From a virus, in the IMG/VR virus record IMGVR_UViG_3300037493_005407, positions 1-64,000 of that record: 64,000 bases of DNA. One strand, written 5' to 3'. Below are positions 3,274-31,202 of this stretch, piece after piece (positions within the stretch are counted from its first letter, which is position 1; the number at the start of each line of letters is the position of its first letter). The translations under genes and the position numbers were made by a program. Below the pieces are notes generated by a model. That model saw only the letters and a program-made list of their open reading frames with translations, was not told the DNA's origin and ran no database searches.

Positions 3274-3614
3274 GGGGCTGAAAGGTTTAGACGGTACAAC
3301 TGAAGTTATGCTCGCACGCCCCTGATGACGCTTACAGGGTATAGAAGTGTCAAACATCAAATGCCGAACCGCAGGAGATGCTGAAAGCGGCTTGACCGCT
3401 CTCCGTCGTACAGTCCCTTCCCTCTGTAGAGGCTGATACGGCGTAATTAACCAGGGCGCTCTGACCAAAGGCTCTCAGTATGGTCAGCTAAGATACGAGA
3501 GAAAACTGATACGCTATCGTGGCAGGTAGCGTACCAAGAGAGATGCCACCAAGCGTGTGGACGAGGGTGTAGAAGAAGATGTATCGGACCCGGTTTCGAT
3601 TACCGGCAGCTCCA
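3274..3614 (+). ncRNA. ssrA: Transfer-messenger RNA (tmRNA)
   Basis: tmRNA rescues stalled ribosomes, acting first as an alanyl-tRNA and then as an mRNA for a degradation tag. The 5' end GGGGCTGAAAGG...GACGG pairs over 7 bp with CAGCTCC at 3607-3613, followed by discriminator A. The T-arm CCGGTTTCGATTACCGG is intact, and the 3' end closely matches the bacterial GGAC...CAGCTCCA pattern. A tag frame at 3363-3395 reads AEPQEMLKAA-stop, with the stop inside a hairpin (3386-3400), as in helix P5 of known tmRNAs. CCA is not encoded. The exact resume codon is inferred. Confidence 0.88.
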
Positions 3615-3768
3615 ATCAGGTCCACTTTTCCGTTGCAAAGTTGACGCAGAAAAAGACGCTTATGCTAAGGAACACGGATTTTTAGTTGTGAGACGCGCAA
3701 CCGAGGTATACTGCGTGTTGGACCCAGCAGTACTCGAAGGGCTCTAGTAAGAATAAACGGAGAAAAAC
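3615..3768 (+). other. Spacer with a start-less open frame
   Basis: Between the tmRNA and the next gene one frame reads ...KVDAEKDAYAKEHGF then LVVRRATEVYCVLDPAV up to TAG 3746-3748. It looks protein-like but lacks an ATG/GTG/TTG start before the tmRNA 3' end, except a late GTG giving about 19 aa. It may be the tail of a gene disrupted when the tmRNA was acquired. No clear promoter for the next gene is visible. Confidence 0.3.
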
Positions 3769-5623: not shown

Positions 5624-5871
5624 AACCACTATTCAAAACGACGATTATTATCTGGTCCGAGGCGAACACCGACAACGTCAGCGCGGAGGAGCTAGCTCAC
5701 GACGCTGACAGCGGCGATTCGTACTGCAGTGTTAAGAACTGCAAATTCGTTGAGAGCCCTGACCAGGACGAGGACTGGGACGACACCGAATTCTTTGGTG
5801 ACGACGAGGAGGAAGAGGAAGAGGAAGAGGAAGAGGAAGAGGAAGAGGAAGAGGAAGAAGAGGATGAGTGA
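5620..5871 (+). CDS. Conserved small phage protein with poly-Glu tail
   Basis: 83 aa, ATGA overlap with the gene before. The N-terminal part (TIIIWSE, then SAEELAHDADSGDSYCS, ending DWDDTEFF) resembles a widespread phage miniprotein whose members share an IWS...DPDWDGTEFF pattern. The C-terminal tail of about 20 Glu is encoded by near-perfect GAG/GAA repeats at 5806-5860 and may vary in length. Confidence 0.75.
   Translation: MKPLFKTTIIIWSEANTDNVSAEELAHDADSGDSYCSVKNCKFVESPDQDEDWDDTEFFGDDEEEEEEEEEEEEEEEEEEEDE
5806..5862 (+). repeat. GAGGAA microsatellite coding for poly-Glu
   Basis: A run of GAG/GAA codons, largely the hexamer GAGGAA repeated, at the end of the preceding gene. Prone to slippage in multiples of 3 or 6. 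Confidence 0.8.
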
Positions 5872-18375: not shown

Positions 18376-18614
18376 GTACTCTCCTCCACGAGCAGCTTCC
18401 ACAGCTCGTTGATCTCCTCACGGTTACGGGCCTCATATTCCTCTTCTCTCCGCAAACGTTCCCGTGCCTCATCGAGCTCACGCTTGGCCTTTTCAAAATA
18501 CCGCTCGCACTCTTCGACTCCCTTCTTGTAAACGAATAGGTCGTGGACTACCTCCTTACGGAAGTCCCGTTTAGCGTCGTAGTCCTCCAGGATGCTGGCT
18601 TTACTCCTCTGCAT
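18372..18614 (-). CDS. Coiled-coil protein
   Basis: 80 aa, ATG with GAGAGAAGG upstream. Nearly all charged coiled coil (EECERYFEKAKRELDEARER...). It is directly coupled to the AcrVA2-like gene. Function unknown. Confidence 0.7.
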   Translation of the reverse strand: MQRSKASILEDYDAKRDFRKEVVHDLFVYKKGVEECERYFEKAKRELDEARERLRREEEYEARNREEINELWKLLVEEST

Positions 18615-18750
18615 AAACCTTCTCTCCTCGATATACTGACCGTGTGATTTCCCGGTACGCGTGGGGCTCCATAAAGAAGGAGTACTCAAGGGCGGTTAAG
18701 AACCCTTTTTCATCTGCTAGCACGCGGTCGTTTTCATACGCCGATTTCAT
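18601..18750 (-). CDS. GF-TA family miniprotein 1
   Basis: 49 aa, ATG 18750 with GTGAGGTG upstream. Core EKGFLTALEYSFFMEP followed by the second segment REITRSVYRGEK. First member at the downstream end of the miniprotein operon described at 18601-31411. Confidence 0.7.
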   Translation of the reverse strand: MKSAYENDRVLADEKGFLTALEYSFFMEPHAYREITRSVYRGEKVYAEE

Positions 18751-18757
18751 TAACACC

Positions 18758-19054
18758 TCACGACTTGTTAACATAGTCCGGAACTTTTCCGCACACCTTA
18801 TACCAACGAAGCATGTCATATGATGTTGCTAACGTTGGTTCTACGTGGTGTTGTTTGAGGATCACTTCGTACAGCACGCAGCCGCACGCGAACGCATTGG
18901 GTGGATACTGGTCAGTCGCCGCGGCTGCCACTGTACGGAAACCTGCTTCGCGCACCTCGCCCCCGAAGGCGCTCGATGAGAAGAAGCCTTCCTGCAAGTC
19001 GTTGACGAACTCCGAGACCCGCTCGTATTGCGTCAACCTTCGTTTATTGGGCAT
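18758..19054 (-). CDS. GF-TA family miniprotein 2
   Basis: 98 aa. Core EAGFRTVAAAATDQYP at residues about 36-51, then ACGCVLYEVILKQHH. The N-terminal extension is longer than usual, with a second Phe-Gly segment (EGFFSSSAFGG). Weak ribosome site (AGGAT). Confidence 0.65.
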   Translation of the reverse strand: MPNKRRLTQYERVSEFVNDLQEGFFSSSAFGGEVREAGFRTVAAAATDQYPPNAFACGCVLYEVILKQHHVEPTLATSYDMLRWYKVCGKVPDYVNKS

Positions 19055-21046: not shown

Positions 21047-21185
21047 TTACTACCTTTCTCTCTAGTTGGATACTGTCGAAGATGCACAGGATGGCGGCAT
21101 CTCCTAGGACACCGCGGTCATTTGCGTAGTTCCAGGCGGTTTGGAATCCGATCATCGTGACGTTAGGTAAGTAGGACAGGGGCAT
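21024..21185 (-). CDS. GF-TA family miniprotein 3
   Basis: 53 aa from ATG 21185, which lies inside the 3' end of thyX. Core MIGFQTAWNYANDRGV and second segment ILCIFDSIQLERK. Close to the family consensus. Confidence 0.65.
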   Translation of the reverse strand: MPLSYLPNVTMIGFQTAWNYANDRGVLGDAAILCIFDSIQLERKVVNVDVPIR

Positions 21186-21783
21186 GCAGAACCACGATGT
21201 CCTCGTACAGGACGCGGTGACTCTCGGGTAGGCAGCGCCACATATCCTGTGCCAGGCGCTGGTATTCGAGGAGTGCATCCTTAGCGAGGCGCGTGTTGAA
21301 CAGGTTGCGCAGCGACCGCGCGTTGATAGTGACGTGAAGCTGCGTCAGCATCGAATCGGGGATGGCGTATTTTGCTACGTCGTTGGGAATTTTCTCCTGT
21401 ACCAACTCGCAAAGAGATTCCATCTGGCACTTGGACGCCATGTCTACCATCGCGTTTCCGGTGTGGTAATACAGCGCCTCAACGTCTACTTTCTTAGAAA
21501 GCAGTTTCTTGAGAGTGAAGCGAGAGCTGCGAACGCTCAGCGTCGCGATGCGGGTGCGGGCGAACTCCTGCAGGCAGGCCCGGGAGAGCTCGACCTCGAA
21601 GGTGTAGACGACGTGCTCGAGGACGCTGGTGTGGCCGCTCGAGATGCAGTGGCGCAGTAGCTTGGCGTCGTTTGGTCCGAGTATGTCCTTTACCGAGTCG
21701 TACTTATCCGCGGAGTCCTTACAGATGCGTGCAGCCTCCACGGCCGAAGTGATATCCGTGTGTCTTAGAAGCTTTGCTGACAT
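21163..21783 (-). CDS. thyX: Flavin-dependent thymidylate synthase ThyX
   Basis: 206 aa. Makes dTMP from dUMP using FAD, NADPH and methylene-tetrahydrofolate. GHTSVLEH (50-57) and RTRIATLSVRSSRF (76-89) correspond to the family signature RHRxxSxNxxSxRY in modified form, and TINARSLRNLFNTRLAKDALLE to the conserved C-terminal helix region. Length is typical of phage ThyX. Ribosome site GAGGA. It starts inside the upstream miniprotein gene and is embedded in the miniprotein operon, so it would be co-expressed with it. Confidence 0.9.
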   Translation of the reverse strand: MSAKLLRHTDITSAVEAARICKDSADKYDSVKDILGPNDAKLLRHCISSGHTSVLEHVVYTFEVELSRACLQEFARTRIATLSVRSSRFTLKKLLSKKVDVEALYYHTGNAMVDMASKCQMESLCELVQEKIPNDVAKYAIPDSMLTQLHVTINARSLRNLFNTRLAKDALLEYQRLAQDMWRCLPESHRVLYEDIVVLHAPVLLT

Positions 21784-21916
21784 TTCGTTGTTCCTCTATG
21801 AGTAGGTTGGCGGTCTCTTCAAGCACATCGAGTGCGTTCGACCCGTTGTCTGCGTCGTACGCGTACCAGTATGCCATGTTTATTCCGTTACGCGTGTCGA
21901 ATTTTAGGCTAGCCAT
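21719..21916 (-). CDS. GF-TA family miniprotein 4
   Basis: 65 aa, TGATG junction. Core RNGINMAYWYAYDADN (Ile for Phe, Met for Thr), second segment ALDVLEETANLLIEE. The last 20 residues overlap thyX by 65 bases and are His/Gly-rich, perhaps an extension after loss of an earlier stop. Confidence 0.6.
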   Translation of the reverse strand: MASLKFDTRNGINMAYWYAYDADNGSNALDVLEETANLLIEEQRNVSKASKTHGYHFGRGGCTHL

Positions 21917-22137
21917 CACGCATAACCTTGAGTTCTTAATTCACGGGATCTTACTAAGACATCTTGTAGCAGCGCTTCTTTAATATGAAATCGAGCGTTA
22001 ACGTTTTCAGGAGTAACCGCTGCGTCACAACAGAGTTCTCCGGCGTAAAACCAGGCTACCCTAGAACCAGCCTGATCTACGTTCCTTGAGAACGTACCAG
22101 ACTTAGACGCATATTTGATTTTTGGTTTCTTCGTCAT
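21916..22137 (-). CDS. GF-TA family miniprotein 5 (diverged)
   Basis: 73 aa. Core QAGSRVAWFYAGELCC keeps Gly, Ala-Trp and Tyr-Ala; second segment HIKEALLQDVLVRSREL. Basic N-terminus (MTKKPKIKYASK). ATGA overlaps. Confidence 0.6.
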   Translation of the reverse strand: MTKKPKIKYASKSGTFSRNVDQAGSRVAWFYAGELCCDAAVTPENVNARFHIKEALLQDVLVRSRELRTQGYA

Positions 22138-22316
22138 TGTTTTGATACCTCCGCAACCGACGCGTCAAGCACGCGGTATGCCCGCGGGTAGTAGAAGAAC
22201 ATCTTACTGTCTGCATCGCGCTTACACGTGTGCTGCCATGCTGTTAGGAAACCGTGGTAGTAATACTGCCAGTCGTCATCGTCTTCAGTGCGTTTCTTCT
22301 CCTTCTTCACCTTCAT
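22134..22316 (-). CDS. GF-TA family miniprotein 6
   Basis: 60 aa. Lys-rich then Asp-rich N-terminus, core YHGFLTAWQHTCKRDA, second segment RAYRVLDASVAEVSK. ATGA overlap at both ends. Confidence 0.7.
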   Translation of the reverse strand: MKVKKEKKRTEDDDDWQYYYHGFLTAWQHTCKRDADSKMFFYYPRAYRVLDASVAEVSKQ

Positions 22317-22516
22317 CCCAACCCCTTCCTAAGGAGCCTATCGATCTTTTTCTTGTACGAATACTCCGCTGATTTTGTGACCTGCTCTAGGCCCCGGTGG
22401 TGTACCAGGAAATTAGGACCGCCGAACTGGTCAACGATGATCCGCATGCAGTTGGCGTAATTGCACGCCTCCATAAAGCCTTCTTCGACTGCGTGTCGGA
22501 CGTCATACCCCTTCAT
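22313..22516 (-). CDS. GF-TA family miniprotein 7
   Basis: 67 aa. Core EEGFMEACNYANCMRI and second segment GLEQVTKSAEYSYKKK. Basic C-terminus (KKKIDRLLRKG). Confidence 0.7.
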   Translation of the reverse strand: MKGYDVRHAVEEGFMEACNYANCMRIIVDQFGGPNFLVHHRGLEQVTKSAEYSYKKKIDRLLRKGLG

Positions 22517-22703
22517 TTTCTAACCTCACAGCTGTGCGGATAGATTCTTCCACAAGGTTTCTGTTCATCACGTGGGTGTAAATAGGACCGAACACGCCGT
22601 TAGCCTGCTCGGTGCTCATGTAGCACGCGTAGTCGTACGCCGTTAAATAGCCACAGCGTATGCGGTCGTCCCTTTGGTAGGCTGGCTTCTTTTGCTTCTT
22701 CAT
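22503..22703 (-). CDS. GF-TA family miniprotein 8
   Basis: 66 aa. Core RCGYLTAYDYACYMST, second segment HVMNRNLVEESIRTAV. Basic N-terminus (MKKQKKPAYQRDDR). Confidence 0.7.
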   Translation of the reverse strand: MKKQKKPAYQRDDRIRCGYLTAYDYACYMSTEQANGVFGPIYTHVMNRNLVEESIRTAVRLENEGV

Positions 22704-22876
22704 CGGGAATCGTAAAGTAACTGGGCCATCCTTTCTTCATGGCTCATGTTGAGGCACGAGTTGTAGATCACCTCTCGAGAGTAGTCGTTACTCCTGGGTG
22801 TGTAGTTTAACGCCGCCGCGAATCCACGTATCATGACAATGGTTACGATGCGGTCATTGTCCAATAGCGCGGACAT
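22700..22876 (-). CDS. GF-TA family miniprotein 9
   Basis: 58 aa, ATG 22876 with GAGGA nearby. Core IRGFAAALNYTPRSND, second segment VIYNSCLNMSHEER. Longer readings of this frame lack a plausible ribosome site. Confidence 0.65.
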   Translation of the reverse strand: MSALLDNDRIVTIVMIRGFAAALNYTPRSNDYSREVIYNSCLNMSHEERMAQLLYDSR

Positions 22877-22880
22877 CTCC

Positions 22881-23234
22881 TCAGTCTGCGTCCTCATCCT
22901 CGTCTTCGACATCGGTGTCGGCATTGAGCTCCTCTTCTGATACTTCTTCACCGGCGGCACGCCGTGCTCTCGCCGCGGAGAGACGCTCTGCAGCCGCTTG
23001 GCGCTGCTCTGGAGTGAAGACACGGGCTGCGTCCGTCTTGAGCACGAGGCCCGCACGCTTGGGAGAGTACTTGACCCACTCGAGGTTGGGGGTGCTCTTC
23101 TTGTACGGCTGCCATGAGTAGAGCGAGCAGGCAGAGTTTCCGCAGTCCCGGTCACGGTCAAAGTAATGCCCCATGCAGTCGTGACACTTGGCAAGAACTG
23201 CAGCCTTCATGGATGGTTTGGCTTCTTTGGTCAT
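22881..23234 (-). CDS. Cys-rich conserved phage protein
   Basis: 117 aa. CHDCMGHYFDRDRDCGNSACSLYSW is a four-to-five Cys site related to a common phage domain (CxDC...C...C-L). It is followed by a basic linker, an Ala/Arg helix and an acidic tail (TDVEDEDEDAD). Not a GF-TA member. Confidence 0.7.
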   Translation of the reverse strand: MTKEAKPSMKAAVLAKCHDCMGHYFDRDRDCGNSACSLYSWQPYKKSTPNLEWVKYSPKRAGLVLKTDAARVFTPEQRQAAAERLSAARARRAAGEEVSEEELNADTDVEDEDEDAD

Positions 23235-23413
23235 CGGTTCTCCTTTGTTCCCATCAGGATTAACAGCTCTCCAATTTGGTCTAGGCTGATCATTCGCATG
23301 GATTCGTCGATAACAGTTTTTACTGCGCGGTTCGCATCGAGTACTACCGTGCTAAACCCGAGCATTTCGTGAGCTTTTTCTTGCGGTATTACTACCTTGG
23401 GTAGGGGCCTCAT
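23231..23413 (-). CDS. GF-TA family miniprotein 10
   Basis: 60 aa. Core MLGFSTVVLDANRAVK, second segment VIDESMRMISLDQIG. ATGA overlaps both neighbours. Confidence 0.65.
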   Translation of the reverse strand: MRPLPKVVIPQEKAHEMLGFSTVVLDANRAVKTVIDESMRMISLDQIGELLILMGTKENR

Positions 23414-23607
23414 CGTAGGTACAGATTCCCGTAGTCAGTGCACATATGCCAAAGAGTATTCTCGATGGCGTGTGTGTCCTGATGCTCAACTGCGAAGTGC
23501 TTGCGCCTCCAATATTGGAGAATCCGCGCATGGCCCATCGCTTGCGTCATCCCCCAGAGTCCGTAGGTCTTGCTTACGATACGGGGCTTCTTAGACTGGT
23601 AGTCCAC
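23410..23607 (-). CDS. GF-TA family miniprotein 11 (diverged)
   Basis: 65 aa. Core TYGLWGMTQAMGHARI, with the T-A step altered; second segment HAIENTLWHMCTDYG. Confidence 0.6.
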   Translation of the reverse strand: MDYQSKKPRIVSKTYGLWGMTQAMGHARILQYWRRKHFAVEHQDTHAIENTLWHMCTDYGNLYLR

Positions 23608-23825
23608 TACTTTCTCTTTTGTAGGAATGACTCACTCTCCTCTAACGCGCTCAGTTCTATCATGTGGCGTTGATGACCGTTATAGTACAGGTTATCAGCG
23701 AGTACGGTAGCATGAATAAACGACGTTGTTAACCCGTACTTATGGATCAAGTAGTTTACTGTTATGCTGTTAGCTCGAATCTTTTGGTAATCCTTCGGGA
23801 GAGCGTCCGTACCACTCATCCTCAT
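23607..23825 (-). CDS. GF-TA family miniprotein 12
   Basis: 72 aa (or 70 from the second ATG); AAGGAG upstream. Core KYGLTTSFIHATVLAD, second segment HMIELSALEESESFL. Overlaps the gene before by 56 bases. Confidence 0.65.
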   Translation of the reverse strand: MRMSGTDALPKDYQKIRANSITVNYLIHKYGLTTSFIHATVLADNLYYNGHQRHMIELSALEESESFLQKRK

Positions 23826-23982
23826 CTCCTTTCTCTTCGAACATCCGCATACTGATGGTTATGACGCGAACAGCACGCGCTCCTCGCCACCCAATATCCG
23901 TCATCTTTGCGAGAGTGGTGGCGTGTTGGTTAGCGGTGTTGAACCCGCGGAAGGCGTCCGCGATGGCGCTAGATGAGAACAT
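23770..23982 (-). CDS. GF-TA family miniprotein 13
   Basis: 70 aa from ATG 23982. Core FRGFNTANQHATTLAK, second segment AVRVITISMRMFEEK. The last about 20 residues overlap the next gene and have a different composition. Confidence 0.65.
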   Translation of the reverse strand: MFSSSAIADAFRGFNTANQHATTLAKMTDIGWRGARAVRVITISMRMFEEKGDEDEWYGRSPEGLPKDSS

Positions 23983-24319
23983 GCGGATCCCACGCACACG
24001 GCAACGAAAGCCCTAGTGGCGCGCGGACAACGTAGTCTTCGATGTCGAAGCGCACCGAAGCAAAGAACATTTCTTGACTGTCGTGCAGTTTGAAAGTGAT
24101 CTCGTGCGTGCTGCGTTCCGCGTGAATCTTCCAACCAGAGCGCCACTCCCCCAATTCTTTCTGCTTCTTGCTGTACCTGCGAATAGAGCACCCGCCGCCG
24201 CCATTAAAGATGTGTGCGAACTTAGACGAGTGCACCCGTAGCTCATCGCGCTCGGGCAATACAATCAAGATGTGGTTGTCGATGATGCCGTTTAGAAACG
24301 TGATAGTTGGATTTTTCAC
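23969..24319 (-). CDS. Hypothetical protein inside the miniprotein operon
   Basis: 116 aa, GTG start overlapping the previous stop (GTGA) with AGGA upstream. Beta-rich (ITFLNGIIDNHILIVLPERDELRVHSSKF), with a GGGG turn; no GF-TA core. Fold not recognised. Confidence 0.65.
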   Translation of the reverse strand: MKNPTITFLNGIIDNHILIVLPERDELRVHSSKFAHIFNGGGGCSIRRYSKKQKELGEWRSGWKIHAERSTHEITFKLHDSQEMFFASVRFDIEDYVVRAPLGLSLPCAWDPHVLI

Positions 24320-24612
24320 CAGATTCGTCCTATCTGTTGGCTCGTAATGCTGAGAGAGTCTTCCACTAGAATCTGCGCCTTTATAGGCACTCGTGATTCT
24401 TCGCAGTGATTCCAAACTTCGCTGTACCCGCAAAAACATGCTCGGTCTTCGTACGTGAGAACGTTATCTCCAAAGGTTTCTTCGTCTTTAATAACCGGAG
24501 TCACCGTATCCCAGAAGATAGTGTCGTTGACAAACTTCCACTTCTTTAGGTGCTGCTGGTACGCTGTATCAAACCCGTACTTGCGTAATGTGATTTTGTA
24601 GTCCGCTAGCAT
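24316..24612 (-). CDS. GF-TA family miniprotein 14
   Basis: 98 aa. Core KYGFDTAYQQHLKKWK close to the N-terminus, second segment TIFWDTVTPVIKDE. The C-terminal half (CFCGYSEVWNHCEES) is extra and may be a second, diverged unit (CGYSEVWNH). Confidence 0.65.
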   Translation of the reverse strand: MLADYKITLRKYGFDTAYQQHLKKWKFVNDTIFWDTVTPVIKDEETFGDNVLTYEDRACFCGYSEVWNHCEESRVPIKAQILVEDSLSITSQQIGRIW

Positions 24613-24616
24613 GCTG

Positions 24617-24760
24617 TTACCAGAAATAGTTACTACGGGTACGTGTCGCCATGTACGAGGCGTCGAGAAGGTTGTACGCCCGCTCGTTGTTACTATTCAG
24701 CGCGTGGGCCATGGCCGTACTAAAGCCGTAGTACGCAATCATCGCGTTGTGTTCAGGCAC
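24617..24760 (-). CDS. GF-TA family miniprotein 15
   Basis: 47 aa, GTG start with GGAGGAAATACCAAC upstream. Core YYGFSTAMAHALNSNN, second segment RAYNLLDASYMATR. The shortest member; it shows that core plus second segment is a complete unit. Confidence 0.7.
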   Translation of the reverse strand: MPEHNAMIAYYGFSTAMAHALNSNNERAYNLLDASYMATRTRSNYFW

Positions 24761-25031
24761 GTTGGTATTTCCTCCATGGGGTAGAAATGAAGTTCGCAGA
24801 GATGCGTGTCAGAGGGTACCGCATCTCCATCTGGTATGTTTCGAGGTCGTTAAGGCTTAAGGTAAGCTCGTAAATCTGAGCATCTCGACTGAGCATCGAA
24901 CGTGTCTCATAACTAGAGCACTCCGCCGCGGTTTCAAATCCCGCTCGCAGGTAGAACACGGGGTTATTTTTGTACAGCTTTCTTCTTTCGCTTCGGCGTT
25001 TTCTCTTGAGTTTTTTCTGTTTTGCTTTCAT
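24753..25031 (-). CDS. GF-TA family miniprotein 16
   Basis: 92 aa. Very basic N-terminus (MKAKQKKLKRKRRSERRK) that overlaps the upstream gene by 68 bases, then core RAGFETAAECSSYETR and second segment IYELTLSLNDLETYQ. An internal GTG just before the core is an alternative start. Confidence 0.65.
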   Translation of the reverse strand: MKAKQKKLKRKRRSERRKLYKNNPVFYLRAGFETAAECSSYETRSMLSRDAQIYELTLSLNDLETYQMEMRYPLTRISANFISTPWRKYQRA

Positions 25032-25395
25032 TAAGAACCTCGTCCAATCTTCTTATCATAGCTGCGTACCCCTGCATACGGTCCATAACGCTCGACTCGT
25101 CTACTTTTACGAGATGTGTTTCGTCTAGAGCAAATGGCACGTGGCCTGTCTCTAGGAGGAATTTTGCGTTTCGGACAAGCTGGATAGAGACCAGACTGGG
25201 ATAGCTGTTACCTCGAGCAGTACGATCCATTATCTTCACAACTTGGTATACGCCACCTCCACTTCCGTTGTTTTCGTTATACGTACTGAACACCAAGTCA
25301 CCGATACGCAGTTTCTTAACCGTGCTGACAGTAGTCTTTCCAGTTTTTCTGACAGTACTGAACCGTGTCATAGATTCGGTTGGGGTAAAGGGCAT
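24964..25395 (-). CDS. Hypothetical protein containing a captured array fragment
   Basis: 143 aa, AGGAGG before ATG. SH3-like beta region (LRIGDLVFSTYNENNGSGGGVYQVVKIMDR) and Lys-rich tail. Its codons for MTRFSTVRKTGKTT (25331-25375) are 43/45 identical to 26537-26581, where the same DNA is read in another frame as part of a GF-TA gene. The 5' end thus carries recombined array DNA. Confidence 0.7.
   Translation of the reverse strand: MPFTPTESMTRFSTVRKTGKTTVSTVKKLRIGDLVFSTYNENNGSGGGVYQVVKIMDRTARGNSYPSLVSIQLVRNAKFLLETGHVPFALDETHLVKVDESSVMDRMQGYAAMIRRLDEVLNESKTEKTQEKTPKRKKKAVQK
25331..25375. repeat. 45-base direct repeat, copy A
   Basis: GTAGTCTTTCCAGTTTTTCT... to ...GTGTCATAGAT on the + strand matches 26537-26581 except for two adjacent bases (GT against CC). 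Confidence 0.85.
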
Positions 25396-25403
25396 GCTAC
25401 CTC

Positions 25404-25562
25404 CTACTTGAAGTACCAGACGCTGTTATGCACCACGGCTACAGCCGCGACGCGTTCGGAGTGCAGATACATCTGGAGTTTGGCGAAGTCGTAGGCGGTG
25501 CTGAACCCCGCCTTCTCAACGCTCGATTTGGGGATTGGTGGTTTTGGTCTTACTGGTTTCAT
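25404..25562 (-). CDS. GF-TA family miniprotein 17
   Basis: 52 aa, ATGA overlap with the next upstream gene. Pro/Lys N-terminus (MKPVRPKPPIPKSS), core KAGFSTAYDFAKLQMY, second segment VAVVHNSVWYF. Near-perfect consensus. Confidence 0.7.
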   Translation of the reverse strand: MKPVRPKPPIPKSSVEKAGFSTAYDFAKLQMYLHSERVAAVAVVHNSVWYFK

Positions 25563-25831
25563 TCGTCTTCCATCCAAACTGGATGACGTGCGTAGTGCTC
25601 TGCCTCCTCACAGATGTCCAAGATCCACAGACGCAAGGTATGACGGGCACATGGGCTTATGCGGGTGTAGTCACGTTTGAGCTCGTTGGCATACCGGAAG
25701 GCGACGCTGACACCCGCGCGCTGTAACTCACTTAGGTCTGGGTCAAAGAAGGCTTTGTTGTTCCAGTCTTTGCGTGTGCGGCTACTCCGGCGGCGGTTAG
25801 GGCTGAAGCCTCTTCCCACTATGTACTGCAT
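25559..25831 (-). CDS. GF-TA family miniprotein 18
   Basis: 90 aa. Arg-rich N-terminus, core RAGVSVAFRYANELKR (Val for Phe and Thr), second segment HTLRLWILDICEEAEH. Confidence 0.65.
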   Translation of the reverse strand: MQYIVGRGFSPNRRRSSRTRKDWNNKAFFDPDLSELQRAGVSVAFRYANELKRDYTRISPCARHTLRLWILDICEEAEHYARHPVWMEDE

Positions 25832-26175
25832 GTTTCCTCTTTATCGAGCATGTACTCCGGGACGTTCTTGGAGCAGTGTTGCCACGCTAAGATAAGGTCC
25901 TGTACATAGAACTTTTGAGCTTCAACAGTCATCCGTTGCCTACGCTCACAGATAATGATTCCTACATGGTCTATTTTGCCAGACTGAAACGCGCGGTAAT
26001 ACGCCGTATCCCATCCGTACCTAACATCCACTGGAGCATCCGGCACATAACCAGCTGCAAAGGTAACTGAGCGGTATTCAATTGCGGCTAGGTTTAGAAA
26101 ATGCCTCCTCCTCTTTAGTGACGCCGTCTTCTTTTCACGTTTAGTACGCCAGTCGTGACGTGAGTTGTGCGCCAT
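25819..26175 (-). CDS. GF-TA family miniprotein 19 (long)
   Basis: 118 aa, ATG 26175 after GGGAGA. Basic N-terminal extension, core RYGWDTAYYRAFQSGK near residue 58, and second segment MTVEAQKFYVQDLILAW. The longest basic extension in the family. Confidence 0.65.
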   Translation of the reverse strand: MAHNSRHDWRTKREKKTASLKRRRHFLNLAAIEYRSVTFAAGYVPDAPVDVRYGWDTAYYRAFQSGKIDHVGIIICERRQRMTVEAQKFYVQDLILAWQHCSKNVPEYMLDKEETCST

Positions 26176-26335
26176 GCTTTTTCTCCCACCCATAGCGGCC
26201 TAGCTTTCCATCTCCGGTGTACTCTCTAACTTGTGTGACGCTATTTGTGATGATGGTAATATGGATATGACTCCACGCGTTGCAGTAAACAGTTCCGAAG
26301 CCAGCCCGATAGTTTTGCATGTACTGTTTGTCCAT
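26141..26335 (-). CDS. GF-TA family miniprotein 20
   Basis: 64 aa from ATG 26335. Core RAGFGTVYCNAWSHIH, then ITIITNSVTQVREY. The whole core is overlapped, in another frame, by the upstream member ending at 26200. No clear ribosome site. Confidence 0.55.
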   Translation of the reverse strand: MDKQYMQNYRAGFGTVYCNAWSHIHITIITNSVTQVREYTGDGKLGRYGWEKKHGAQLTSRLAY

Positions 26336-26526
26336 GTCTCGCGCAAGTTGTCTACGAGATACTGTCTCCCAATGATCTTCCCTGACGCATCGGAAATCAG
26401 CATGTGCTGCCGCTTCATGGTATCCAGGGACTTGTGTATCTCCCATTCGACTCCTAGTCCGTCGCGGTTATCGTACGCGGTTGAGTAACCAAAGTAGTCA
26501 GCGAGGCTCTGATAGCTCAGAGGCAT
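26200..26526 (-). CDS. GF-TA family miniprotein 21
   Basis: 108 aa, ATG 26526 with ACGGAG upstream. Core YFGYSTAYDNRDGLGV near the N-terminus, second segment EIHKSLDTMKRQHM. The last about 45 residues overlap the next gene by 136 bases and may be an out-of-frame extension after loss of the original stop. Confidence 0.6.
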   Translation of the reverse strand: MPLSYQSLADYFGYSTAYDNRDGLGVEWEIHKSLDTMKRQHMLISDASGKIIGRQYLVDNLRETWTNSTCKTIGLASELFTATRGVISILPSSQIASHKLESTPEMES

Positions 26527-26680
26527 ATACCACTCCGTAGTCTTTCCAGTTTTTCTGACACCACTGAACCGTGTCATAGATAACGTTGAACGGCCGCTCT
26601 ACGGGTGGCTGCATCATCGAAGAGTGCTCGTACGCAACAGATAGTCCGAAGTGATTAACCAAATCCGAAAATATGCTCAT
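26498..26680 (-). CDS. GF-TA family miniprotein 22
   Basis: 60 aa, start at the ATG following GGGAGGA. Core HFGLSVAYEHSSMMQP, second segment NVIYDTVQWCQKNWKDYG. The second segment is encoded by the 45-base repeat found again at 25331. Confidence 0.65.
   Translation of the reverse strand: MSIFSDLVNHFGLSVAYEHSSMMQPPVERPFNVIYDTVQWCQKNWKDYGVVYASELSEPR
26537..26581. repeat. 45-base direct repeat, copy B
   Basis: Matches 25331-25375 (43/45). Here it encodes YDTVQWCQKNWKDY of a GF-TA gene, probably its source. Confidence 0.85.
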
Positions 26681-26706
26681 ACGCGCGTCCTCCCACTTTA
26701 CAGGTA

Positions 26707-26943
26707 TTAGTGTCGCAGCCATTCCATTTCCAGATCGCGCTGTGTGACGTGCAGCATAATCATCTGACGGTCGTCGTCGTAGATTGTGCCGTTGCGGAGC
26801 TCGAACAAGTGCTGCACGACTTCACGTAGACCGGCGACATCGAACTTTCTGAAACCGTAGGTAAACCAGAAATAATTATCTGTATCGAGCGATGTAAAAA
26901 TCTGTGGTTTCTCTTGTACCTCTCCATCTCTGTTATCTGGCAC
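26707..26943 (-). CDS. GF-TA family miniprotein 23 (diverged)
   Basis: 78 aa, GTG start with GGAG 7 bases upstream. Core TYGFRKFDVAGLREVV, second segment MIMLHVTQRDLEME. It lies almost wholly inside the next upstream member in another frame. Confidence 0.55.
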   Translation of the reverse strand: MPDNRDGEVQEKPQIFTSLDTDNYFWFTYGFRKFDVAGLREVVQHLFELRNGTIYDDDRQMIMLHVTQRDLEMEWLRH

Positions 26944-27029
26944 TTGGCTAGCTCCATGAGTCCGTGGAATTCAGCGGTTGCGAATCCCATCACAACTAAA
27001 AGATCCGCTGGTTGGGTGGTGTCAGACAT
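26760..27029 (-). CDS. GF-TA family miniprotein 24
   Basis: 89 aa. Core VMGFATAEFHGLMELA at residues 13-28. After residue about 35 the composition (Ser/Thr-rich, CSTCSSSATAQSTTTT) suggests translation past a lost stop; this part overlaps the preceding entry by 184 bases. Confidence 0.55.
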   Translation of the reverse strand: MSDTTQPADLLVVMGFATAEFHGLMELAKCQITEMERYKRNHRFLHRSIQIIISGLPTVSESSMSPVYVKSCSTCSSSATAQSTTTTVR

Positions 27030-27243
27030 ACGCTGTCTCCGTATTCAAGAGCACCCAAGTGCTCTCGCGGATGATATCCCTCCCGGTGTTGGTGAGCCCT
27101 AGGCATTTCTTACAGTGGTACACATAGTGTTCGTCCTCGATGGTTTTCGCGTATTCCCAGGAAGTCTTAAACCCTTTCGTAGTTACGTGCGTGTGATGCA
27201 CGTTTACCATGAGGCCAGAGCATGTGCGGTTGTTCATGGCCAC
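27022..27243 (-). CDS. GF-TA family miniprotein 25
   Basis: 73 aa. Core TKGFKTSWEYAKTIED, then HCKKC (single Cys knuckle) and second segment RDIIRESTWVLLN. Confidence 0.65.
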   Translation of the reverse strand: MAMNNRTCSGLMVNVHHTHVTTKGFKTSWEYAKTIEDEHYVYHCKKCLGLTNTGRDIIRESTWVLLNTETAYV

Positions 27244-27434
27244 GGAGGATTCCGTAACTGTTTAGCTTTTTCGATAGACATAAAGATAGTGGTATATCCC
27301 GCAGCATAAAGGACTGTTTTTGAGTGGCTCAGCGCTTCCCAGTATCCCGCGGCAAAGGCGACTCTATCCCGGTCTAGGTCACTTGTAATGTGCAGGGGGT
27401 TCCAAGTACGTACACTCGGTTTTTTGAACGACAT
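27234..27434 (-). CDS. GF-TA family miniprotein 26
   Basis: 66 aa. Core AAGYWEALSHSKTVLY, second segment TIFMSIEKAKQLRN. Basic/aromatic N-terminus. Confidence 0.65.
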   Translation of the reverse strand: MSFKKPSVRTWNPLHITSDLDRDRVAFAAGYWEALSHSKTVLYAAGYTTIFMSIEKAKQLRNPPWP

Positions 27435-27437
27435 GCT

Positions 27438-27704
27438 TCACCGTGTTGGGTAGAAAAATTCCTTCTTCTCGATTGTGAGTGATTCGTGCAACTTCCACAT
27501 TACTTTGGCGTCGTACTCATCTTCTATAATCTCGTACGTGTAATCTAGGACGGTCCAGTAACCTCGCTGAATAGCGATACTATCACGCTCGGTGTCATCC
27601 CGGACAGTCGTTTTGGCCGCAACAGCGCGCCGCTGCCCACTCATGTCCCAGATCCACGTGACATCCTTTGTTATGCGCTGCTGGTCTGGCTTAGGTCTAG
27701 GCAT
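27438..27704 (-). CDS. GF-TA family miniprotein 27
   Basis: 88 aa. Core QRGYWTVLDYTYEIIE at residues about 47-62, second segment VMWKLHESLTIEKKE. Its start overlaps the upstream member by 34 bases. Confidence 0.65.
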   Translation of the reverse strand: MPRPKPDQQRITKDVTWIWDMSGQRRAVAAKTTVRDDTERDSIAIQRGYWTVLDYTYEIIEDEYDAKVMWKLHESLTIEKKEFFYPTR

Positions 27705-27841
27705 GTCTGCGCCTCGATGCTCTCCCAGATAACGTTATGTATCCGCCCAAACAGATTTCCTTTCATCTTGGACATGGAGTACCAGTACGCCTCGGCAAAC
27801 CCGTCGAGGCAATCTAGGAGGGTTGGGCTGTTACCGTCCAT
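27671..27841 (-). CDS. GF-TA family miniprotein 28
   Basis: 56 aa, ATG overlapping the preceding stop by 11 bases. Core LDGFAEAYWYSMSKMK, second segment RIHNVIWESIEA, very close to VIYDTVQW of member 22. Confidence 0.7.
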   Translation of the reverse strand: MDGNSPTLLDCLDGFAEAYWYSMSKMKGNLFGRIHNVIWESIEAQTCLDLSQTSSA

Positions 27842-28055
27842 GGATCACCAGTCTAGTGACGGTATCATAGAGCTCGGAAGCATCAGGACCCTGGAGGACG
27901 TTAAAGGTCTTTACCAGCGTCTTCAGCTCGTGACTGTACTCGAGACTTTCTACGTGGTGCAAGGCCGCTGCGAATCCGTAGCGTTCGGCATTGTCCTGAA
28001 ACTGGTTTTTGTCGAACTTACCAACGTAGACGTTACTATACGGCGGTAGGATCAC
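27831..28055 (-). CDS. GF-TA family miniprotein 29
   Basis: 74 aa. Core RYGFAAALHHVESLEY, then TLVKTFNVLQGPDASELYDT. The VLQG-D segment recurs in the member at 31163, giving residue-level evidence that the proteins are paralogues. Confidence 0.7.
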   Translation of the reverse strand: MILPPYSNVYVGKFDKNQFQDNAERYGFAAALHHVESLEYSHELKTLVKTFNVLQGPDASELYDTVTRLVIHGR

Positions 28056-28236
28056 CTGGTAGTTCCTTTCCTGCGAAATACGACAACGTCTTTTTCACTT
28101 CCGCGAACTGATGCTGCTGTTGTGGCGACCCCCACTGCTCATTCAGCTCCAGGTAGCCGACGATGTTATAAACCGTTAGCATCCCCCAGGCTTCAATAAA
28201 TGCACTGTGGCGTATGGTCAGATGTGCTCTCGTCAT
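28036..28236 (-). CDS. GF-TA family miniprotein 30 (diverged)
   Basis: 66 aa. Core EAWGMLTVYNIVGYLE keeps L-T-V and Tyr; second segment FAEVKKTLSYFAG. Confidence 0.55.
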   Translation of the reverse strand: MTRAHLTIRHSAFIEAWGMLTVYNIVGYLELNEQWGSPQQQHQFAEVKKTLSYFAGKELPGDPTAV

Positions 28237-28399
28237 GCCTCCTCCAGTGTTCCTCCGTCATGGACCTTCCTAGGGCCTCGAGTTGTTCACTCTCCCGGTA
28301 GTACTCCTTACCGTTTCTGAGGGTGTATACGTCCATGTGTTTCCGAGCCGTGTAGAATCCGAGCTGCTTATATTGCGTGGGATCGAAGCGTAAGACCAT
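28193..28399 (-). CDS. GF-TA family miniprotein 31
   Basis: 68 aa. Core QLGFYTARKHMDVYTL, second segment SEQLEALGRSMTEEH. The His-rich C-terminus overlaps the next gene. Confidence 0.65.
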   Translation of the reverse strand: MVLRFDPTQYKQLGFYTARKHMDVYTLRNGKEYYRESEQLEALGRSMTEEHWRRHDESTSDHTPQCIY

Positions 28400-28523
28400 C
28401 TATGGCCCTCCGTATCAGCGTTAAGTGCAGCATGGACTGTGCCCAGCCTTCATCGATCATGATATGTGAATACGCAGTACCAAAGCCAGCGTCTTCAGCT
28501 TGTTCTTGGTAGACCAGTGCCAT
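28368..28523 (-). CDS. GF-TA family miniprotein 32
   Basis: 51 aa, ATG after AGGAGCAAGCG. Core DAGFGTAYSHIMIDEG, second segment MLHLTLIRRAIDG. Near-consensus minimal member. Confidence 0.7.
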   Translation of the reverse strand: MALVYQEQAEDAGFGTAYSHIMIDEGWAQSMLHLTLIRRAIDGLTLRSHAI

Positions 28524-28740
28524 CGCTTGCTCCTAGTAATTTGAAGAAGTTGACGCTGCGGGAGACCTCAATCAAATGCGAGCGGTTGATACCGCGAGGA
28601 GCGGCGCACGTAATGTACTCCCGTATGGCGTAGAAGCCCCACTTCTCATGCTCGGGCCAGTTTACCGGCGTGTCATACCCATCGTTTCGTTCTGTATAGC
28701 CGTTACCACGCTGCACCGTAACATGCGCATGCCGTCCCAT
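28495..28740 (-). CDS. GF-TA family miniprotein 33
   Basis: 81 aa. Core KWGFYAIREYITCAAP, second segment HLIEVSRSVNFFK. Confidence 0.65.
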   Translation of the reverse strand: MGRHAHVTVQRGNGYTERNDGYDTPVNWPEHEKWGFYAIREYITCAAPRGINRSHLIEVSRSVNFFKLLGASDGTGLPRTS

Positions 28741-28898
28741 GGTTTACGCCTCTTTTTGAGTTTTTGGTAAATGTTCGTGGTGTAAACAAAGGCTGACCAG
28801 TAGCCGTACGTTTCGTAAGCGAGGCTCTCCTCGTCGAACAGCACGGTGCTGATGAGCTTGTTTCGTTCTTGGGTTTCGGGGTCTGGTTTTACTACCAA
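28662..28898 (-). CDS. GF-TA family miniprotein 34
   Basis: 78 aa from TTG 28898, chosen because AAGAGGCG lies just upstream and it overlaps the previous stop. Core TYGYWSAFVYTTNIYQ, second segment MLRCSVVTAIQNE. Overlaps the next gene by 79 bases. Confidence 0.6.
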   Translation of the reverse strand: MVVKPDPETQERNKLISTVLFDEESLAYETYGYWSAFVYTTNIYQKLKKRRKPWDGMRMLRCSVVTAIQNETMGMTRR

Positions 28899-29089
28899 CC
28901 TACGCCTCTTATAAGGGTTTCGAGTGTCATGTGAAGTGCATTGATTTGGTTCGCTACCTGCTCGTGTTGCCAGCAACGCGGTATGTACTTTTTGATGCAT
29001 CCCGTTGCAACGGCGAGGTCGTTCGAGAATTCGCGAGCGGTGCGTAACCCGCATACTTCGTACAGGTCACGCATGGGCTTATAGAGCAT
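28892..29089 (-). CDS. GF-TA family miniprotein 35
   Basis: 65 aa. Core VCGLRTAREFSNDLAV close to the N-terminus, second segment NALHMTLETLIRG. Confidence 0.65.
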   Translation of the reverse strand: MLYKPMRDLYEVCGLRTAREFSNDLAVATGCIKKYIPRCWQHEQVANQINALHMTLETLIRGVGW

Positions 29090-29300
29090 GACCTTTTCCC
29101 CATTCCCTCCATAGATTGTTTAGGGTGTCTATGATTGCGTCCACTTGGTAACGCACCGACTCGCTTTTTCCGTGCCATACGTCTGGTAGTTCGTCGTCTG
29201 CTACGTACTCCTTGTCTTGTGTGTATCGGCGGGCTGTTAGGACTCCTACCGTCGCGTATTGAACACGTCGTTCTTCAGAGATGTGCAGGGGTGGTTTCAT
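29079..29300 (-). CDS. GF-TA family miniprotein 36
   Basis: 73 aa. Core TVGVLTARRYTQDKEY, second segment QVDAIIDTLNNLWRE. Confidence 0.65.
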   Translation of the reverse strand: MKPPLHISEERRVQYATVGVLTARRYTQDKEYVADDELPDVWHGKSESVRYQVDAIIDTLNNLWREWGKGHAL

Positions 29301-29454
29301 TTGGGCTCGATAGCAGTAGCGCTACAATAGTTCGTTGAATTTCTTCCCATTCTCTCCTGGACACGGTCCACCGGTTATCTTCCATTAAATAATGGAGTAT
29401 CGTTTCTAACCCAGCGTCTTGATAACGCTTAAAGAAGGGCGGTAGTGATTTCAT
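29275..29454 (-). CDS. GF-TA family miniprotein 37
   Basis: 59 aa from ATG 29454 (GGAAAC upstream). Core DAGLETILHYLMEDNR, second segment EEIQRTIVALLLS. Confidence 0.65.
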   Translation of the reverse strand: MKSLPPFFKRYQDAGLETILHYLMEDNRWTVSRREWEEIQRTIVALLLSSPNETTPAHL

Positions 29455-29632
29455 AGATTGTTTCCAAATCAGACAGGGTGTAGCGAAGTTCATTCCACGC
29501 GCCTGTGTACTTTTCGCTGTGCTCCAGGAGCAGTAGGTGACTGATCGCTATGAGAGTTCCGTGTAGGTGGTGGCGCGCGAAGTAGGCGTGGTTTAATAAA
29601 CCCTCAGATTTATCACCACTTGTTAACGGCAT
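29429..29632 (-). CDS. GF-TA family miniprotein 38 (diverged)
   Basis: 67 aa from ATG 29632. Core SEGLLNHAYFARHHLH has Gly and aromatic positions but a shifted Ala-Tyr; second segment LRYTLSDLETIYEI fits the family well. Confidence 0.6.
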   Translation of the reverse strand: MPLTSGDKSEGLLNHAYFARHHLHGTLIAISHLLLLEHSEKYTGAWNELRYTLSDLETIYEITTALL

Positions 29633-29978
29633 CGCGTACCTGATTTTGAAGGTCACGCATCTGCCATCCCCGGCCCATCTTGGAACTGAAGATGCCGAGG
29701 TCCGCGGCGATCTTCTTCATGAGGGCAAGCCCGTGCACGCCTTCCAGGGCATTGATGGGAGCACCGTTCATGTCGAACAGCTGGGACTTAGGATTCCGCT
29801 TTTCCGTGGTGTGGCGCTCGGCGACATCCTTGAGGACTGTGGGAGGCACTCCCAGCTCGACGAGTTGTGCGATTGCGTAAATGGTGTGACCGTCTCCGCC
29901 GAGGAAATCGAGAATCTCTTCGACCTTTTCTTTTCCGAGTTCTTTGGTCCAATTCATTGTGGTTGAATCTGTAGCCAT
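29613..29978 (-). CDS. Helical protein, not GF-TA
   Basis: 121 aa. Well-behaved soluble helical protein with the GDGHTIYAIAQLVELGVPP segment, then VLKDVAERHTTEKRNPKS and LMKKIAADLGIFSSK, hinting at a helix-turn-helix-like DNA-binding fold. Unproven. Could be a regulator within the operon. Confidence 0.65.
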   Translation of the reverse strand: MATDSTTMNWTKELGKEKVEEILDFLGGDGHTIYAIAQLVELGVPPTVLKDVAERHTTEKRNPKSQLFDMNGAPINALEGVHGLALMKKIAADLGIFSSKMGRGWQMRDLQNQVRDAVNKW

Positions 29979-30151
29979 GGGTAATCCTCTCTTGCTGCGT
30001 TTTCGATGCTTTGAGCGAGTTCGAAGCGGGATATGTCAAGGACACATCCTGGGATGTTTAGTTGGTGCCAAGCGGCCGTGGTGTAACCACAGTCATCGGC
30101 GATTTGTGTGAACCTTGCGGAGTAGTTCCATTCAAACAGGGTGTCTTCCAT
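29954..30151 (-). CDS. GF-TA family miniprotein 39
   Basis: 65 aa. Core DCGYTTAAWHQLNIPG, second segment RFELAQSIENAARED. It lies downstream of the minus-strand copy of the promoter-like element. Confidence 0.65.
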   Translation of the reverse strand: MEDTLFEWNYSARFTQIADDCGYTTAAWHQLNIPGCVLDISRFELAQSIENAAREDYPWLQIQPQ

Positions 30152-30209
30152 TCAGAGGCTCCAAGACGATTAGGATGGTGTGGTCTGGAAGGATTTCGCA
30201 GATAACGAC

Positions 30210-30431
30210 TCAGAGCTCCGGGTGTGCCTCGAGCTGGTTACCCGCTGTACGTAGGGCGCCTTCAGGCGTCATCACAATGCGGATGCGCGTTAGTGAACCC
30301 TCAGCATTCTTCTCCTGGACATAGGACCCCTGCATGACGACTACCTCCTGGATTTGTGTTTTGGTGCACCCACCTAGGAGAAAGGCTAGTACTACAACGA
30401 GCCTTTTACCAAAAGTGCATGCGGATTCCAT
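30210..30431 (-). CDS. Small lipoprotein
   Basis: 73 aa from ATG 30431. Basic n-region (GKR), hydrophobic core LVVVLAFLL and lipobox LGGC at about residues 19-22, so the mature N-terminus would be a lipidated Cys followed by about 50 residues. Possible outer-membrane partner (o-spanin-like) of the membrane coiled-coil proteins, but distance and length make this speculative. Confidence 0.6.
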   Translation of the reverse strand: MESACTFGKRLVVVLAFLLGGCTKTQIQEVVVMQGSYVQEKNAEGSLTRIRIVMTPEGALRTAGNQLEAHPEL

Positions 30432-30568
30432 TGCAGAGGTCCGTCGTATTTTTTCCATTGTCCGTTCACTTTACTATAAACGACGTCGCATTCACAACAT
30501 TGAATAACCGTCTCAGAGTACATCATGATGTTACTCGCGCACTCGGGGCACGTGTCGAACTCGGGCAT
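30392..30568 (-). CDS. Zinc-ribbon miniprotein
   Basis: 58 aa from ATG 30568 with GGAAACC upstream. CPECASNIMMYSETVIQCCEC is a compact ribbon. Not GF-TA. Confidence 0.65.
   Translation of the reverse strand: MPEFDTCPECASNIMMYSETVIQCCECDVVYSKVNGQWKKYDGPLQWNPHALLVKGSL
30402..30415 (-). promoter_or_regulatory. Minus-strand copy of the promoter-like element
   Basis: Read leftward, CTTTTGGTAAAAGG matches the rightward copies (best to 44210). It lies inside the overlap of two genes, so it may be coincidental coding sequence or an internal promoter for genes from 30151 downward. Confidence 0.3.
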
Positions 30569-30570
30569 GA

Positions 30571-30843
30571 TTATGGTTTCCAATCCAGGAACTCCTTCTG
30601 GTGAAAACAAAACCCGATAGCCGTTGCCAGACAATACGCCCTGTTGTTTTTCAAGATCTCGTCACAGTAACTTAGGACCGTAGTGAATCCTTGGTCATAC
30701 GCAAAGAATATGACTCCATCGTTGCTTTCCCCAGAGGCCATCACAACCCTATTTAGTAAACGGTATTCGTCTAAACGTGGGATATCTTCAGTTAAGAAAC
30801 GTAAAAAATATTCACGTGTACTAAAGTGCGGATTACTGCTCAT
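30571..30843 (-). CDS. GF-TA family miniprotein 40
   Basis: 90 aa. Core DQGFTTVLSYCDEILK near residue 50 after a helical N-terminal extension, then AYCLATAIGFCFHQKEF. Confidence 0.65.
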   Translation of the reverse strand: MSSNPHFSTREYFLRFLTEDIPRLDEYRLLNRVVMASGESNDGVIFFAYDQGFTTVLSYCDEILKNNRAYCLATAIGFCFHQKEFLDWKP

Positions 30844-31042
30844 TTCTTGCGGCCTCTTCCGTCACCATACTGATATGCATTTGCATGTTACGGTAGATAA
30901 GGGTGGCTGTTTCGCTTCTTTCCCACCTACCCTGTGTATGACTTAGGAAGATACTGTGTGTTGTTACCGTATAGAAGCCGGCAGCTTCTCCATAGTGCAT
31001 ATTGAGATTTCTGAAGTCGAGCTGAGCAGAGTCGCTAATCAT
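30833..31042 (-). CDS. GF-TA family miniprotein 41
   Basis: 69 aa, GGAGG upstream. Core AAGFYTVTTHSIFLSH, second segment ATLIYRNMQMHIS. Confidence 0.65.
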   Translation of the reverse strand: MISDSAQLDFRNLNMHYGEAAGFYTVTTHSIFLSHTQGRWERSETATLIYRNMQMHISMVTEEAARNEQ

Positions 31043-31202
31043 CTTTTGTTTCCTCCGCGATTACTCCTTCGTTCATGCGGGAGCTTACTGTTTCGAGAAT
31101 GAGTTCAACGGCGAGGGCGGTCGTTACGGAGCGGAGGGCTGTTTCGAAGCCTTCCCCATCGGCTAAGGCATAGAGCATTTCGGTGGCGATGTCAGCTCCC
31201 AT
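31035..31202 (-). CDS. GF-TA family miniprotein 42
   Basis: 55 aa, ATG after AAAGGGGCGGT. Core GEGFETALRSVTTALA, second segment VELILETVSSRMNE. Start overlaps the upstream member by 40 bases. Confidence 0.7.
   Translation of the reverse strand: MGADIATEMLYALADGEGFETALRSVTTALAVELILETVSSRMNEGVIAEETKDD

What the first reader, a model, noticed from the sequence alone, without database searches (positions are those of the whole stretch)
25331..26581. 45-base repeat shows array DNA being recombined into another frame
25331-25375 and 26537-26581 are 43/45 identical. In the second copy the DNA encodes the second segment of a GF-TA member (YDTVQWCQKNWKDY); in the first it is read in a different frame as MTRFSTVRKTGKTT near the N-terminus of an unrelated 143-aa protein. 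The array is therefore actively duplicating and shuffling, and fragments land in neighbours.
Basis: seen in the sequence. Interest (0 to 1): 0.75.

Follow-up and report, generated by a model that had tools for sequence, protein, structure and literature searches.

The report
Gene fragment copied into neighbour, out-of-frame
In an uncultivated phage, a 45-base piece of one small gene has been copied into the start of a neighbouring gene 1.2 kb away, where it is read in a different frame and adds 16 new amino acids; it is a clean single snapshot of how new protein sequence arises, not proof of ongoing shuffling.

Summary
25331-25375 and 26537-26581 match at 43/45 bases, are unique in the window, and are far beyond chance. 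The second copy encodes IYDTVQWCQKNWKDY inside a small gene of the "GF-TA" array (frame A). The first is read one base out of phase, as SMTRFSTVRKTGKT, near the start of a 143-aa protein.

Two tests support a move from the array into that gene. (1) The syntenic counterparts in two related phages (G014, G010) both lack exactly the 16 residues the segment encodes. G014 is also clear by sequence; G010 rests on synteny. (2) In both copies the segment's codon usage fits frame A; only about 1% of windows truly coding in frame B look like this.

The junctions fit a 48-nt insertion between CCCCAAC and TGTCAGC. The donor shares CAAC at the left edge, suggesting a microhomology template switch (inferred).

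"Actively duplicating and shuffling" is not supported: this is the only such repeat in the window, and the array paralogs are old (30-40% identical at best). One in-frame case in another relative hints that fragment copying recurs. Ordinary kind of event, unusually well resolved.

The parts
25331..25375 (-). Copy 1 of the 45-nt repeat, inside the 5' end of the 143-aa gene; read in frame B (SMTRFSTVRKTGKT)
25331..25378 (-). Inferred 48-nt insertion (3 nt + 45 nt copy) between CCCCAAC and TGTCAGC; the protein alignment places the gap at 25333-25380, within 2 nt
26537..26581 (-). Copy 2 (likely donor): third predicted helix region of a GF-TA array protein, read in frame A (IYDTVQWCQKNWKDY)
24964..25395 (-). 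Recipient gene, 143 aa, unknown function; AGGAGG Shine-Dalgarno 4 nt before the ATG; counterparts of 142 aa (G014) and 120 aa (G010)
26498..26680 (-). Likely donor gene, GF-TA array member, 60 aa (74 aa if started at 26722)
26200..26526 (-). Next array gene, 108 aa, starts just after copy 2 (GGAG 6 nt before ATG 26526); frame B of copy 2 is open into it
25404..25562 (-). Short GF-TA member directly upstream of the recipient gene
21916..31202 (-). Main span of the GF-TA array of small genes, interrupted by unrelated genes; two further members at 18601-19054
22881..23234 (-). CHDCMGHY cysteine-motif gene, synteny anchor (54% identical in G014, 62% in G010)
21163..21783 (-). ThyX thymidylate synthase (Pfam Thy1), synteny anchor (65% identical in G014 and G010)

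Best explanation
A single, fairly recent templated insertion. About 48 nt of coding DNA from a GF-TA array gene (26498-26680) was copied into codon 6 of a gene 1.2 kb downstream on the same strand. The length is a multiple of three and the frame used has no stop, so the recipient gene stayed open and gained a basic 16-residue segment in its N-terminal tail, read one base out of phase with the donor. The most likely mechanism (inferred, about 0.5) is a two-jump template switch during replication or repair: the growing strand left the recipient at CAAC, annealed to CAAC in the donor, copied 48 nt up to GACTAC, and returned through a 2-nt AC match. Shown: the repeat, the frames, the absence of the segment in the two counterparts, the codon-usage direction. 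Inferred: donor identity, molecular mechanism, near-neutrality of the new segment.
For: Repeat far beyond chance. The G014 counterpart reads MPRSP-IVSKLKGFTKGDLV and the G010 one MPKKR-KIPDMSSGFLPGDAV, against MPFTP[TESMTRFSTVRKTGKT]TVSTVKKLRIGDLV: both lack exactly 16 residues at the repeat. Window-G014 homology: local score 77 against a maximum of 60 in 3000 shuffles, same gene order with the CHDC gene and ThyX. In both copies codon usage favours the array frame (log-odds +6.9/+6.4) over the frame used in the 143-aa gene (-1.8/-1.5); 25-30% of true frame-A windows but only 0.8-1.0% of true frame-B windows reach this contrast, while the rest of the 143-aa gene scores +16.9 in its own frame. 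Taking out 48 nt gives CCCCAAC|TGTCAGC; the donor has TTCAAC at the same boundary, a 4-nt match with probability 0.004 at a fixed boundary. The 45-mer is absent from the other viral contigs and from all fetched relatives.
Against: The G010 counterpart rests on gene order and an aligned core, not on significant pairwise similarity (scores 37 and 42 lie within shuffle ranges). N-termini are short and variable, so gap placement is partly the aligner's choice. The 3 nt next to the left edge (CGA against GTT) do not match the donor, so the CAAC microhomology is suggestive only. A third, unseen source for both copies is not excluded.
Confidence: 0.85

Rival explanations
1. Larger duplication followed by deletion: a bigger block containing the array gene was duplicated next to the 143-aa gene and later eroded, leaving 45 nt.
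For: GF-TA genes lie on both sides of the 143-aa gene, and the 204-aa gene that precedes its counterpart in G010 and G014 is not found here, so the neighbourhood has been rearranged.
Against: The recipient keeps its own start (MPxxP with its Shine-Dalgarno site) before the segment and its own sequence right after it; a pure 48-nt insertion explains the alignment without residual donor DNA on either side.
Confidence: 0.15
2. Reverse direction: the segment began in the 143-aa gene and was copied into the array gene.
For: The array gene has no detectable orthologue, and its second segment adds little to its fit to the family model (6.7 bits with, 6.0 without).
Against: Both syntenic counterparts of the 143-aa gene lack the segment, and codon usage in both copies fits the array frame.
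Confidence: 0.05
3. A functional DNA element (operator, promoter or mobile palindrome such as a MITE) that happens to sit in both genes.
For: The repeat holds TGACA-N11-TGTCA, and both copies lie near a gene start.
Against: The motif occurs nowhere else in the window. The hairpin is no stronger than in shuffles (z +0.2 to -1.25). Only two copies, no terminal inverted repeats or target-site duplication seen, and codon usage marks the segment as coding in the array frame.
Confidence: 0.05
4. Assembly artefact joining reads at a shared stretch.
For: Metagenomic contig; no second assembly of this region was found.
Against: The longest exact match is 24 nt and the copies differ by 2 bases; both flanks are open, well-formed genes with Shine-Dalgarno sites, and the gene order matches relatives.
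Confidence: 0.03

Closest known systems
Rickettsia palindromic elements (RPEs), as described in PMC10969869
   Same: Short DNA inserted into unrelated protein genes without breaking the reading frame, adding a peptide segment.
   Different: RPEs are palindromic, about 150 bp, and present in dozens of copies of ten families. Here there are two copies, 45 nt, with no stable palindrome, and one copy is part of a gene.
Microhomology-mediated template switching / templated insertions (FoSTeS- or MMBIR-like; own knowledge)
   Same: Short local copy, same strand, small microhomologies at the junctions, target kept intact.
   Different: Mechanism is inferred here from one product; no intermediate, enzyme or second independent event in this gene was seen.
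Partial gene duplication and chimeric gene origin (topic of the review PMC3449122, abstract only)
   Same: Part of one gene becomes part of another.
   Different: The piece is read in a different frame, so it yields a new peptide rather than a shuffled domain.
Small-gene arrays of other phages in this group (contigs G010, G014)
   Same: The region upstream of this gene block holds many 50-100 aa genes with divergent paralogs.
   Different: Their sequences are not recognisably GF-TA, and no out-of-frame transfer was seen there.

Membership tests
Templated short insertion by microhomology template switch | Inserted segment has a nearby template | tested here: met
   43/45 match 1206 bp away on the same strand
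Templated short insertion by microhomology template switch | Empty site known from relatives | tested here: met
   Two syntenic counterparts lack the 16 residues; protein level only, G010 weakly supported by sequence
Templated short insertion by microhomology template switch | Microhomology at both junctions | tested here: inconclusive
   CAAC (4 nt) at the left but followed by 3 mismatches; only AC (2 nt) at the right
Mobile palindromic element (RPE/MITE-like) | Inverted-repeat structure | tested here: not met
   Fold no better than shuffles; 5-6 bp arms only
Mobile palindromic element (RPE/MITE-like) | Multiple dispersed copies | tested here: not met
   Two copies in the window; none in other viral contigs or fetched relatives
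GF-TA small-gene family (donor gene) | Matches a family model built without it | tested here: met
   Leave-one-out score 6.7 bits against a shuffle maximum of 3.4; members were picked by motif, so biased upward
Orthologue group of the 143-aa protein | Sequence similarity plus conserved gene order | tested here: met
   G014: score 77, 0 of 3000 shuffles; order 143-aa - CHDC gene - ThyX conserved

The most novel reading that the evidence does not exclude
This locus in a group of large tailed phages is a hot spot where short coding fragments are repeatedly copied between neighbouring small genes, in and out of frame, making new peptide segments by local template switching. The second hint is a 46-nt (42/46) in-frame copy between two adjacent genes in contig L108 (8253-8298 and 8489-8534), one of them the same CHDC-motif gene.
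Probability: 0.15. Interest if true: 0.65.

Novelty: new member of a known kind. Interest (0 to 1): 0.4.

Why it matters
Most new protein segments are too old to trace. Here donor, recipient and uninterrupted relatives can all be identified, so the birth of 16 residues from out-of-frame reading of a neighbour's DNA can be dated and tested. It also warns that short matches at the starts of phage proteins may be transferred DNA rather than homology. One event does not establish a diversification mechanism.

Tried and rejected
No near DNA match to sequenced phages, and no relative of the 143-aa protein by single-protein or two-sequence scans of viral contigs or by a scan of genome contigs; relatives came only through the capsid gene and the neighbouring CHDC gene. 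The GF-TA model found nothing convincing outside this genome. PHROGs and Pfam gave no usable hit for the 143-aa or GF-TA proteins. AlphaFold of the 143-aa protein was low-confidence (mean pLDDT 42) and used only to note that its first 27 residues are among the least certain. The GF-TA model is a few short helices at moderate confidence, the copied segment lying in the third; no fold search was run on it. A background scan of 1.19 Mb of loci found other local repeats of this size; L108 8253/8489 proved to be an in-frame copy between neighbouring genes, the rest were not followed up gene by gene. A regulatory-element reading was tested and dropped. Literature searches found no report of this case.

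Full report
What the window is. The window is nearly all of a 64,944-base virus record of IMG/VR, from a tailed phage. Its capsid protein matches relatives at up to 100% (a 7-kb contig) and otherwise 61-79% in the table shown, and Salmonella phage Arash at 41%. No near DNA match to sequenced phages was found for 17-33 kb. That stretch is transcribed leftwards and holds many small genes, most with good Shine-Dalgarno sites. Many share a G-F-x-T-A-x-x-Y motif; 23 places match a model built from them (partly circular), and most members beat shuffled copies of themselves against a model built without them, although they were chosen by motif.

The repeat. 25331-25375 and 26537-26581 share 43 of 45 bases. 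The expected number of such pairs by chance is about 4e-14. Apart from a GAGGAA microsatellite it is the only repeat with an exact core of 18 nt or more in the window. In the second copy the array gene 26498-26680 reads IYDTVQWCQKNWKDY (frame A). In the first, the 143-aa gene 24964-25395, which has AGGAGG 4 nt before its ATG, reads SMTRFSTVRKTGKT (frame B), one base out of phase. Frame B is also open in the second copy and runs into the next gene, but that gene has its own better start at 26526.

Empty-site test. A homologue was found in contig G014 (IMGVR_UViG_3300037493_005685): 142 aa, local score 77 against a maximum of 60 in 3000 shuffles. Gene order supports orthology: the 143-aa gene, then the CHDC-motif gene (54% identical), then ThyX (65%) follow in the same order and orientation in both. 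A third counterpart lies in contig G010 (IMGVR_UViG_3300037042_003932) between the same neighbours as in G014; its pairwise similarity alone is not significant, so it counts by position. Both lack 16 residues: MPRSP-IVSKLKGFTKGDLV and MPKKR-KIPDMSSGFLPGDAV against MPFTP[TESMTRFSTVRKTGKT]TVSTVKKLRIGDLV. The gap, 25333-25380 in DNA terms, coincides with the repeat to within 2-5 bases. GF-TA genes were not detected in either contig, though both have their own arrays of other small genes.

Direction test. I trained codon frequencies on the other array-region genes and compared frames over the 45 nt. Frame A scores +6.9 and +6.4, frame B -1.8 and -1.5, in copies 1 and 2. Among windows truly coding in frame A, 25-30% show so large a contrast; among windows truly coding in frame B, 0.8-1.0%. 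The remainder of the 143-aa gene scores +16.9 in its own frame. Windows overlap, so these fractions are descriptive, but the contrast is clear: the segment carries the mark of the array frame in both places.

Mechanism. Taking 48 nt (25331-25378) out of the recipient leaves CCCCAAC|TGTCAGC, which would encode MPFTPTVSTVKK and aligns without a gap to the start of the G014 protein. The donor has CAAC at the matching left boundary; the next three bases differ (CGA against GTT), and on the right only AC is shared. A two-jump template switch is therefore plausible, not shown. All differences between insert and donor fall in two clusters (3 and 2 adjacent bases). Retention is easy to explain: the length is a multiple of three, frame B has no stop, and the tail is probably not part of the folded core (low-confidence model).

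What is not supported. The array shows no other recent DNA-level duplication: its best protein pairs are about 30-40% identical. In 1.19 Mb of related loci the other repeats of this size cluster mostly in a few contigs at short spacing, consistent with repetitive proteins, which I did not check one by one. One exception was examined: in L108, 46 nt (42/46) are shared in frame between the end of the CHDC-motif gene and its neighbour. That is a hint of recurrence, no more.

Verdict. Observation confirmed. A one-off templated insertion from the array into a neighbour, read in a new frame, is the best explanation (0.85). The claim of an actively shuffling array is not supported. The kind of event is known; the instance is new and well resolved.

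Noticed in passing
window 3274-3615 (+): Phage-encoded tmRNA, full-length by ARAGORN and Rfam (89 bits), tag AEPQEMLKAA; uncommon in phages to my knowledge and might help name the host group.
   Followed up: partly
L108 8253-8298 and 8489-8534: 46-nt repeat (42/46) shared in frame between the CHDC-motif gene's tail (KHAAETIDVSDADLP) and the next gene (QHAAETIEVSDDDLL): a second case of fragment sharing between neighbours.
   Followed up: partly
window 24964-25031 (-): The lysine-rich end of the 143-aa gene overlaps the lysine-rich start of a possible 92-aa GF-TA ORF (24753-25031) in another frame; the real start of that ORF is uncertain.
   Followed up: no
L105 1-4600 and L091 8451-14105: Relatives G010 and G014 carry arrays of 50-100 aa genes upstream of the same gene block, with divergent paralog pairs (up to 39% identical in G010) unlike GF-TA.
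   Followed up: partly
window 25395-25404; L091 7823-8437; L105 4871-5485: The 204-aa gene directly upstream of the 143-aa counterpart in both relatives was not found in the window, where a GF-TA gene takes its place.
   Followed up: partly
window 5809-5858 (+): GAGGAA microsatellite.
   Followed up: no
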